A DNA stretch of 64,000 bases from Salvelinus alpinus (Eukaryota > Chordata > Actinopteri > Salmoniformes > Salmonidae): positions 7,559,503 through 7,623,502 of the forward strand of contig NC_092122.1 in NCBI RefSeq assembly GCF_045679555.1, written 5' to 3'. A model generated the notes under the pieces. The model worked only from the letters and a program-made list of their open reading frames with translations, ran no database searches and was not told the origin of the DNA. Position numbers and translations under genes: made by a program. Shown piece by piece: positions 35,301 to 38,300 of the stretch (the stretch's first letter is position 1; each line of letters begins with the position of its first letter).

Positions 35301-38300
35301 CACCTAGCTAAGTCTCACCTGTTCTCACCGGACTAAGGCTGTATCTATCCTTACCTGGCTGAGGATGCAGCCAGACTGTCAGTGTGTCTTCTCTGCCAGG
35401 TTGAAGATGTGCTGTTCTCACCTGTACTCACTGGTTCTTACCTAGCTAAGGCCTGTTCTCACCTGGCTGAGGCCTGTTCTCACCTGGCTGAGGCCTGTTC
35501 TCACCTGACTGAGGCCTGTTCTCACCTGACTGAGGCCTGTTCTCACCTGACTGAGGCCTGTTCTCACCTGGCTAAGGCCTGTTCTCACCTGGCTGAGGCC
35601 TGTTCTCACCTGGCTGAGGCCTGTTCTCACCTGACTGAGGCCTGTTCTCACCTGGCTGAGGCCTGTTCTCACCTGACTGAGGCCTGTTCTCACCTGGCTG
35701 AGGCCTGTTCTCACCTGGCTGAGGCCTGTTCTCACCTGGCTGAGGCCTGTTCTCACCTGGCTGAGGCCTGTTCTCACCTGGCTGAGGCCTGTTCTCACCT
35801 GGCTGAGGCCTGTTCTCACTTGGCTGAGGCCTGTTCTCACCTGACTGAGGCCTGTTCTCACCTGACTGAGGCCTGTTCTCACCTGGCTGAGGCCTGTTCT
35901 CACCTGGCTGAGACCTGTTCTCACCTGACTGAGGCCTGTTCTCACCTGGCTGAGGCCTGTTCTCACCTGACTGAGGCCTGTTCTCACCTGGCTGAGGCCT
36001 GTTCTCACCTGACTGAGGCCTGTTCTCACCTGACTGAGGCCTGTTCTCACCTGGCTGAGGCCTGTTCTCACCTGGCTGAGACCTGTTCTCACCTGGCTGA
36101 GACCTGTTCTCACCTGGCTGAGGCCTGTTCTCACCTGGCTGAGGCCTGTTCTCACCTGGCTGAGGCCTGTTCTCACCTGGCTGAGGCCTGTTCTCACCTG
36201 GCTGAGGATGCATCCTGATCGGCCGTGTGTTTTCTCCACCAGGTTGAAGATGGGGAAGTTCCAGTTGTTGAGTTGAGTCATCAGAGGATCCAGCTCTGGC
36301 ATTACCAGAGGCTCTGGGGCCAGGATGGGCTGTGTGTCCTAGAGGTCAGGGGTCAGGATCAAGGGTAATTTCAAGTGGCTATGGGTAATAGTATGTTACA
36401 AGGTAGTGCACTGTATAGGGAAATAGGATGTTATTTGGTATTTGCTCTTCGAATCAAATGCATAATTTTATAATGTGTGAATAGATTGATATTGCAGCCA
36501 TGAAATGTTTAGCATATTTGTAGACCCATTTTCATTCCACTCAATGCATTTCTATAGTGGAACCTACCTCTGGAGGTGGCAGTAGGGGGTGCAGGGCGAT
36601 GCCCTCAGGCTGGTACGACCTACACCCGTCCTGGGTGTCTGAGGGCTTCTTGGCCCCCTCCCCGTCGTCCTCGTTCTGTGCAAAGTCACTGCTGTCACTG
36701 TGGTTGGTCTCGTAGGTGCTCTCATAGTCTGACGATGCCACTGCCGGGTCATCTTATAGGACAGGACAGATCAGGGTTCAGGGGTTAAATCAGGTGGTTG
36801 ACACGCTCACAACGTGGCAGATATAAATCTAACACTAAGAAAGAAGACATATATGGAGAAGTAGAGAAGTGTCCTTTTACTGCTTACCAGGGTGGGGTAT
36901 TATGTCCCCTTTGTCCATAGACCCCTCCCCATGGCTCAGCCTGCTGTACGGTCTACCACAGCTGAGAGAGGGGCAGAGGACAGACATGTATATCTCATGG
37001 GAGAGGAGAAAAGTGAACAAGTGGATAAGTGAAGAGTTAACTGCGTCAGTAGCGTGAGAGGAACCAAGGTCAGCTGTTCTAGCTGAACCAGGATCAACGA
37101 CATTATTCCTCTCACCACAGCCAGATCCAGGGGTGGATATTTTGTATTTGTATTTATTACAGATCCCCATTACTTCCTGGGGTCCAGCAACATAAAGGCA
37201 GTTATATACCAAAACAAATGTTACATGACATTACATTTCATAAGACTTTTCACAACATATTAAGTGTGTGCCCTCAGGCCACTACTCTACAACCACATAT
37301 CTACAATACAACATCCATGTGTAGGTGTGTGTAGAGTGCGTTTTTTATCACGTGTATCTGTATGCGTGTGTCTGTGCCTGTGTTTGTGTCTCTCCACAGT
37401 CCCCACTGTTCCATAAGGTGTATTTTTTATCTGTTTTTTAAATCTAATTCTACTGCTTGCATCAGTTACCTGATGTGGAATAGAGTTCCATGTAGTCATG
37501 GCTCTATGTAGTACTGTGCGCCTCCCATAGTCTGTTCTGGACTTGGGGATTGTGAAGAGAGACCTCTGGAGTCATGTCTTGTGGGGTATGCATAGGTGTC
37601 TGAGCTGTGTGCTAGTAGTTTCGGTACATTCAACATGTCAATACTTCTTACAAAAACAAGTAGTGATGAAGTCAACATCTCCTCTACTCTGTGCCCTGAG
37701 AGATTGACATGAATATTATTCAAATCAAATCACATTTTATTGGTCACATACACATGGTTAGCAGATGTTATTGGTCACATACACATGGTTAGCAGATGTT
37801 ATTGGTCACATTCACATGGTTAGCAGATGTTATTGGTCACATGCACATGGTTAGCAGATGTTATTGGTCACATACACATGGTTAGCAGATGTTATTGGTC
37901 ACATTCACATGGTTAGCAGATGGTTATTGGTCACATGCACATGGTTAGCAGATGTTATTGGTCACATACACATGGTTAGCAGATGTTATTGGTCACATTC
38001 ACATGGTTAGCAGATGGTTATTGGTCACATGCACATGGTTAGCAGATGTTATTGTTCACATACACATGGTTAGCAGATGTTATTGGTCACATACACATGG
38101 TTAGCAGATGTTATTGTGAGTGTGGCGACATACTTATGCTTCTAGATCCGACAGTGCAGCAGTATCTAACAGGTAACATCGAACAATTCCACTACAAAAT
38201 CTAATATCTAAGAATTTCGACAACAAAACCTAATACACACAATCTAGTTAAGGAATGAGATAAGAATATATAAGTATAAAATATATGGAGGAGCAGTGAC

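What the first reader, a model, noticed from the sequence alone, without database searches (positions are those of the whole stretch)
35432..36338. A minisatellite made of the gene's own 5' splice site: 36 in-frame copies of the exon 9 donor
The real exon 9 end reads CTCAGCCAG|GTGAGAACAGG, and exactly this 21-bp segment is repeated 36 times into the intron. Almost every copy keeps CAG|GTGAG, a strong donor. The donor is phase 0, the period is seven codons, and the exon frame stays open through all copies (stop only near 35442). Use of copy n would therefore insert n times VRTGLSQ between the ILSQ of exon 9 and the VSYRLFED of exon 10, directly in front of the catalytic domain, with no frameshift. 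Alternatives: U1 snRNP sees a cluster of equivalent sites and copy number tunes splicing efficiency, or the nearest site is always used and the array is neutral. I know of no described case like this in PDE3, though I cannot search.
Basis: partly seen in the sequence, partly recalled or inferred. Interest (0 to 1): 0.9.

Follow-up and report, generated by a model that had tools for sequence, protein, structure and literature searches.

The report
Splice-donor minisatellite in trout PDE3A
In a char (trout family) genome, the end of one PDE3A exon together with the signal that tells the cell where to cut the RNA has been copied 36 times in a row; the array is real, stays in the gene's reading frame and recurs in sister genes, but the evidence points to a mostly harmless DNA repeat and not to extra protein, and human CBS has a repeat of the same kind.

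Summary
On the minus strand, exon 9 of a Salvelinus pde3a gene ends CTCAGCCAG|GTGAGAAC, and 36 units of 21 bp (VRTGLSQ) follow in frame to a TAG at 35442-35444. The coding reading is not supported: none of the 120 relatives listed carries the unit, a Salvelinus namaycush model identical over exons 9-14 joins ILSQ to VSYR, and sister arrays vary mostly by missense. The insertion point lies inside the crystallised catalytic domain, not in front of it.
New here: (1) the probable ohnolog (C11) carries the same array with 19 units; (2) a third pde3a-type gene (C9) carries a different 20.5-kb donor array at the same exon end, open for 2941 codons; (3) the probable ancestral exon/intron junction survives as a decayed copy distal to the array, so exon-tail-plus-donor duplications pushed it into the intron; (4) exon 14 shows one such takeover, polarised by C11. 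Donor-motif minisatellites are not in excess genome-wide over a permuted motif. The nearest precedent is the human CBS 31-bp VNTR. Verdict: a real, slippage-grown donor VNTR, probably spliced at the first donor; a new variant of a known kind.

The parts
   Evidence: matches PDE3A
36190..36206 (-). first (exon-joined) 5' splice site CTCAGCCAG|GTGAGAAC; U1 duplex -11.1 kcal/mol, the strongest of 13 donors of my gene model
35442..36197 (-). 36 in-frame 21-bp units GTGAGAACAGGCCTCAGCCAG (VRTGLSQ); 6 distinct unit types
35442..35444 (-). first in-frame stop (TAG), in the last unit
35160..35441 (-). decayed, donor-rich tail of the array: 6 AGGTRAG in 282 nt (shuffle mean 0.16; 0 of 2000 shuffles reach 6)
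35355..35411 (-). decayed copy B of the exon 9 tail, ending in an intact donor CAG|GTAAGG (GT starts at 35354); TGA in the homologous frame
35245..35302 (-). decayed copy C of the exon 9 tail, ending CAG|GTAACG, still open in the homologous frame (..[12 protein letters not shown]); the probable ancestral exon 9 / intron 9 junction
35215..35244 (-). probable ancestral intron 9 start GTAACGTTAGCTACTGTAGAGCCAAGTGAG, shared with C11 and similar to the array unit of C9
33629..33740 (-). exon 10 (VSYRLFED...), acceptor TGTGTGTTCCAG
29763..29924 (-). exon 14, now ending CAA|GTGAGATC
29635..29696 (-). distal, ancestral copy of the exon 14 tail with CAG|GTACATCT (64-nt match, 89%); single in C11

Best explanation
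It is a slippage-grown minisatellite whose unit carries the gene's own 5' splice site. Step 1 (supported by comparison with C11 and C9): a tandem duplication spanning the exon 9 tail and donor made a second junction; the copy joined to the exon body became the exon end, and the ancestral junction (copy C) was left inside the intron. Step 2 (array seen in both genes; timing inferred): a 21-bp piece (9 exonic + 12 intronic nt) amplified next to the exon before or around the divergence of the two ohnologs, now 36 units here and 19 in C11. Step 3 (inferred): the spliceosome mainly uses the first donor and removes the array with the intron. Because the unit is seven stop-free codons in phase 0, occasional use of an inner donor adds 7n residues and not a frameshift, so the array is tolerated and free to expand. 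Whether the cluster of U1 sites helps or hinders exon 9 recognition is open.
For: Array anatomy. Same unit in 19 copies, with a decayed tail, at C11:42724829. Copy C flank: C11 against the C9 unit 26 of 33 identical, 19 of 25 beyond the donor core, P = 1.3e-7 for this one donor-anchored alignment. Exon 14: two tail copies in the window, one in C11, whose following intron matches the window's distal copy, so the exon-joined copy took over. First-donor use: no RTGLSQ in 120 listed proteins, and P0001 (S. namaycush, 313 of 313 identical over exons 9-14) joins ILSQ to VSYR. No sign of amino-acid constraint: C9 variant types over the whole array 27 missense, 2 synonymous, 2 nonsense; C11 L>H in 6 of 19 units. 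Metagenome ORF P0121 shows exon 9 followed by 4 units, the third VRTGLRQ.
Against: No RNA was seen, so first-donor use rests on annotation of cluster representatives. Recalled work on duplicated 5' splice sites often finds the intron-proximal one preferred, which would predict inner donors. In the window alone, all 4 variable columns of the first 35 units are third codon positions (hypergeometric P = 0.006; 0.025 if the last unit is included), as a coding array would show. The donor core is better kept than the rest of the decayed tail (57 of 69 against 70 of 104, P = 0.019), which hints at selection or homogenisation of donors. Sharing with C11 could be gene conversion in place of common age, and that C11 is the ohnolog is inferred from identity; synteny was not tested.
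Confidence: 0.7

Rival explanations
1. The array is an alternative-donor ladder: inner donors are used in some tissues and make PDE3A with n x VRTGLSQ.
For: Phase 0, 21 nt, open frame, inner donors as strong as the real one; third-position-only variation in the first 35 units; human UBC shows real ladders from tandem AGGT sites (PMC10809524, section read).
Against: No RTGLSQ among the 120 listed relatives although the query carried two units; missense-rich sister arrays; junction invariant in 28 fish and inside the crystallised construct.
Confidence: 0.15
2. The donor cluster acts as an intronic splicing regulator: many U1 binding sites downstream of the real donor strengthen (or, by trapping U1, weaken) exon 9 definition, so copy number tunes PDE3A dose.
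For: 34 further sites with U1 duplex energy equal to the real donor; a downstream U1 site enhances exon definition in human PAH (PMC5933811, abstract); the CBS 31-bp VNTR is reported as associated with reduced activity (title of Lievers 2001, seen as a reference).
Against: Copy number differs between C37 and C11 (36 and 19), and in C9 221 of 272 proximal 30-mers have GGGAG in place of GTGAG, so a fixed number of sites is not maintained. No expression data.
Confidence: 0.3
3. Donors are mutagenic seeds: exon ends carrying CAG|GTGAG are especially prone to grow minisatellites in this genome.
For: 14,106 triple CAGGTGAG matches against 5,892 for the reversed motif; tandem copies at 4 of 25 donors and 0 of 25 acceptors in window and C11; a myosin exon with a 29-bp donor array.
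Against: The permuted motif GAGGTCAG gives 13,625 and its reverse 31,238 triple matches, so donor-motif arrays are not in excess; 4 of 25 against 0 of 25 is P = 0.055 and the exon 9 case is counted in both genes.
Confidence: 0.15
4. Assembly artefact.
For: Tandem repeats are error-prone in assemblies (general knowledge).
Against: Same array at two loci with different copy number and variants, and an independent metagenome ORF with exon 9 + 4 units.
Confidence: 0.03

Closest known systems
Human CBS 31-bp VNTR, c.1444_1467+7(16_21)
   Same: By its name the unit is the last 24 nt of an exon plus 7 nt of its intron, in 16-21 copies, so the splice donor is part of the unit (PMC2630376, passages; PMC1395315, table entry 'exon 13-intron 13').
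   Different: 31 bp is not a multiple of 3; human, population-polymorphic and association-tested. Here the unit is 9 + 12 nt, in frame, and shared with a sister gene; polymorphism untested.
Tandem dual-specific splice sites of human UBC (and VCX3A)
   Same: AGGT at unit boundaries, unit length a multiple of 3, repeat number variable between species (PMC10809524, abstract and three sections).
   Different: In UBC the units encode ubiquitin and a ladder was shown by RT-PCR; here the units lie in an intron, are 38% pyrimidine and so look like poor acceptors, and no ladder is known.
[quoted passage not shown]
   Same: A duplication across a splice junction tolerated because splicing picks one copy (PMC2630376, passage).
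   Different: There the duplicated site begins an exon and the more distal copy is favoured; here it is the donor and the exon-joined copy appears to be kept.
Intronic U1 binding downstream of the PAH exon 11 donor
   Same: A second U1 site near a real donor (PMC5933811, abstract).
   Different: One element with a shown enhancing effect, not an array.

Membership tests
Donor-spanning exon/intron VNTR (CBS 31-bp type) | unit spans the exon end and intron start, so each copy carries the donor | tested here: met
   9 exonic + 12 intronic nt per unit; 35 of 37 positions CAG|GTGAG
Donor-spanning exon/intron VNTR (CBS 31-bp type) | copy number varies between individuals | tested here: inconclusive
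   36 here, 19 in C11, 4 in metagenome ORF P0121, which may be a collapsed assembly
Donor-spanning exon/intron VNTR (CBS 31-bp type) | effect on gene product | not testable with these tools
   no RNA or enzyme data
Tandem dual-specific splice-site array (UBC type) | AGGT at the unit boundaries and unit a multiple of 3 | tested here: met
   21-nt unit; AGGT at 36 of 37 positions, one CAA|GT
Tandem dual-specific splice-site array (UBC type) | boundaries used both as 5' and 3' splice sites | not testable with these tools
   unit is 38% pyrimidine against 65% for the last 20 nt before exon 10, so 3' use looks unlikely
Tandem dual-specific splice-site array (UBC type) | repeats lie in the coding region and encode the product | tested here: not met
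   none of 120 listed relatives carries the unit; sister arrays missense-rich
PDE3A | PDE3 catalytic domain, closer to PDE3A than PDE3B | tested here: met
   659 bits to PDE3A, 606 to PDE3B; best relatives named PDE3A

The most novel reading that the evidence does not exclude
The exon 9 donor of pde3a has separately become an in-frame donor array in two old paralogue lines (21-bp in C37/C11, 30/15-bp over 20.5 kb in C9), and leaky use of inner donors produces a family of length-variable PDE3A proteins, so splice-site copy number is a heritable dial on PDE3A activity in salmonids.
Probability: 0.1. Interest if true: 0.85.

Novelty: new variant of a known kind. Interest (0 to 1): 0.5.

Why it matters
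It offers a natural series (36, 19 and hundreds of copies) in which equal splice donors compete inside real genes, a question usually studied with minigenes, and each wrong choice would be readable as a clean 21-nt or 15-nt ladder in RNA. It also shows, with an outgroup, how exon ends move: a duplication across a donor lets the exon-joined copy take over while the ancestral junction decays in the intron.

Tried and rejected
Purifying selection on the peptide: suggested by third-position-only variation in the window, set aside after C11 (L>H in 6 of 19 units), C9 (27 missense, 2 synonymous, 2 nonsense variant types) and P0121 (VRTGLRQ). RNA or DNA folding of pieces of the array: no better than dinucleotide shuffles (z -0.24 and +0.31). 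Block duplication within the array: variant order not periodic (best lag match 5; 69% of shuffles reach it). Search for the array through the other strand's frame: one unrelated protein. A donor-motif excess genome-wide: apparent against the reversed motif, not upheld by the permuted motif; these counts are overlapping triple matches, not arrays. The CAGGTAAG count was asked for five times and never answered. Structure of a trout PDE3A (P0008 with 27 relatives): mean pLDDT 43, too poor to build on; it puts the exon 9/10 junction (Q273/V274) in a helix 267-282 where the 10-residue means are 38, 60 and 72; a hint only. Exon 9 of the C5 and C33 genes was not found in the stretches fetched, so whether they carry an array there is untested. 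Literature: 10 searches answered; nothing in the listed titles and abstract starts describes a donor array in PDE3 or in a salmonid.

Of 12 donor-motif arrays fetched from the first 16.1 Mb of C1, 2 start at what read as coding exons (L038, supported by Pfam Myosin_tail_1, E 4.7e-8; L037 only by a weak partial match to Myosin-11); the other 10 gave no clear exon by a simple frame check, which would miss some.

Full report
Setting. The gene on the minus strand is pde3a: exons 9-14 and part of 15 match human PDE3A (659 bits) better than PDE3B (606) among solved structures, and exons 9-14 are 313 of 313 residues identical to a Salvelinus namaycush model, P0001, and 312 of 313 to the S. fontinalis representative P0002.

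The observation. Exon 9 (36338-36198) ends CTCAGCCAG|GTGAGAAC. From there 36 units of 21 bp run to 35442, all VRTGLSQ until a TAG in the last. Of 37 donor positions 35 are CAG|GTGAG, one CAA|GTGAG, one TAG|GTAAG. Against the U1 5' end (recalled), CAG|GTGAGAAC scores -11.1 kcal/mol; the other 12 donors of my gene model score -4.5 to -10.4 (boundaries of exons 4-8b are approximate). By this measure the strongest donor of the gene is the one repeated.

What surrounds it. Beyond the array lies a 282-nt decayed tail with 6 AGGTRAG sites (shuffle mean 0.16, 0 of 2000 reach 6), whereas the remaining 1419 nt of intron 9 have none. The tail holds two decayed copies of the exon 9 tail, B and C. B has a TGA in the homologous frame; C is still open there. 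Both keep the 17 nt TGCATCCTCAGCCAGGT intact. This core is better kept than the rest of the copied tail (P 0.01-0.03, three pairwise tests), and the donor core better than the rest of the tail units (57 of 69 against 70 of 104, P 0.019). That is weak evidence for donor retention, or for homogenisation.

Sister genes. A search of the own genome for CTCAGCCAGGTGAGAACAGG found 35 places, 23 in the window's array and 12 on C11. C11 looks like the salmonid-duplication ohnolog (inferred from identity; synteny not tested): exon 9 followed by 19 in-frame units, then VTTSEYR and a stop, an open frame of 187 codons. Only the main unit type is shared; the two arrays have different variants. The best-matching stretches are 93.2% over 738 nt (exon 9 and its flank plus array units), 85.9% over 1096 nt (array units, tail and intron) and 84.0% over 605 nt of intron alone. 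The protein search of the genome also found pde3-type genes on C9, C5 and C33; C9 is closer to the window gene (70-89% by exon) than C5 and C33 (60-85%). On C9, exon 9 (...GRILSQ) is followed from its very donor by an array of another sequence, 30- and 15-bp units, from 8736522 to about 8757000, nearly the whole intron; from the donor to the end of the fetched DNA there are 331 CAGGTGAG and 449 CAGGGGAG, and exon 9's frame stays open for 2941 codons. Its proximal 8.8 kb is very uniform (272 30-mers, 44 15-mers); 221 of the 272 have GGGAG, a destroyed donor. So the three pde3a-type genes found here each carry an in-frame donor array at the same exon end. Exon 9 of C5 and C33 was not located.

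Polarity. The 30 nt that follow copy C in the window and C11 (GTAASGTTAGCTACTGTAGAGCCAAGTGAG) resemble the C9 unit: 26 of 33 for C11, 25 of 33 for the window, 19 of 25 beyond the donor core for both, P 1.3e-7 for this one donor-anchored alignment. I read copy C as the ancestral exon 9/intron 9 junction, and the array and copy B as inserted between it and the exon body. Exon 14 gives a worked case: the window has two tail copies, C11 has one, and C11's intron start matches the window's distal copy. So after the two genes parted, a duplication across the donor made a new, exon-joined end (CAA|GTGAGATC) and left the old one (CAG|GTACATCT) in the intron.

Does it code? Against: with two units built into the query, 661 proteins matched, 120 were listed, and none of the 120 contains RTGLSQ; the salmonid entries read [14 protein letters not shown], and one of the 120, P0022 of Pampus, has nine unrelated residues (TLTVRFWFQ) at this junction. 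Cluster members behind the representatives, and the unlisted 541, were not seen. ILSQVS is invariant in 28 aligned fish proteins. A solved PDE3A chain begins 45 residues upstream of the junction, so an insert would fall within the crystallised catalytic domain. C11 and C9 arrays vary by missense. For: the window's variable columns within the first 35 units are all third positions (P 0.006), which I take as chance given the sisters. A second search, with exon 9 + 10 units, gave 35 matches, of which I read 14; the best, metagenome ORF P0121, reads exon 9 as in the window, then [29 protein letters not shown]: an independent sighting with 4 units, either a short allele or a collapsed assembly.

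How common is it? In the window, 2 of 13 donors (exons 9, 14) and 0 of 13 acceptors have a nearby tandem copy; in C11, 2 of 12 (exons 5, 9) and 0 of 12 (exon 4 was not in the fetched DNA). Together 4 of 25 against 0 of 25, P 0.055, not independent. Three CAGGTGAG in a row at short spacing occur 14,106 times genome-wide against 5,892 for the reversed motif, but a permuted motif gives 13,625 and its reverse 31,238, so there is no donor-specific excess: the genome is simply rich in such minisatellites. Of 12 arrays sampled, one lies at a clear myosin-tail exon and one at a probable one. The natural reading is survivorship: a duplication across a donor leaves the exon usable, so it persists.

Known kinds. 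Human CBS has a 31-bp VNTR named c.1444_1467+7(16_21), i.e. the last exonic 24 nt plus 7 intronic nt (PMC2630376, passages; PMC1395315, table entry 'exon 13-intron 13'); its association with reduced activity was seen only as the title of Lievers 2001. UBC has tandem dual-specific AGGT sites spliced as a ladder (PMC10809524, abstract and sections 7, 9 and 22). The pde3a array is of the CBS kind, with an in-frame unit and a recurrence in sister genes that nothing listed in the ten searches made describes.

Judgement. The array is real and its anatomy as described; its most likely state is a tolerated, expanding donor VNTR spliced at the first donor. A role through U1 clustering or leaky splicing remains open and is directly testable in RNA.

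Noticed in passing
G000:C9:8736522-8757000 (L019-L021): 20.5-kb donor-containing minisatellite starting exactly at the exon 9 donor of a third pde3a-type gene; exon frame open for 2941 codons; most proximal donors read GG in place of GT.
   Followed up: partly
window 29633-29924: Exon 14 tail plus donor duplicated; the exon-joined copy has replaced the ancestral junction, as the single copy in C11 shows.
   Followed up: yes
L022 2758-2949 (C5) and L023 7053-7218 (C33): A probable PDE3B-like exon ending ...DLNMTR is followed by tandem copies of its tail and donor (4.9 and 2.6 copies by TRF); exon identity not confirmed.
   Followed up: partly
L038 1464-2111 (C1:14577400-14581000) and L037 604-760: Myosin-tail exon with an 18-copy, 29-bp donor array, and 8 kb away a probable second exon with donor-like repeats.
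   Followed up: partly
G000:C11:42718042: Exon 5 donor of the sister gene has a 30-nt, 83% copy of its junction about 100 nt downstream.
   Followed up: partly
window 36568-36751: The S. namaycush and S. trutta models P0001, P0006 and P0007 lack residues at the end of this exon ([10 protein letters not shown] in the window) that P0002 and other models have.
   Followed up: no
P0022 (Pampus punctatissimus PDE3 model): Nine residues TLTVRFWFQ between ILSQ and VSYR, the only listed protein with an insert at this junction; perhaps an upstream acceptor or an annotation slip.
   Followed up: no
window 13313-14205, 37737-38116, 43478-43709, 56911-57896: Other tandem arrays in the window (410-, 31/94- and 52-bp periods).
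   Followed up: no
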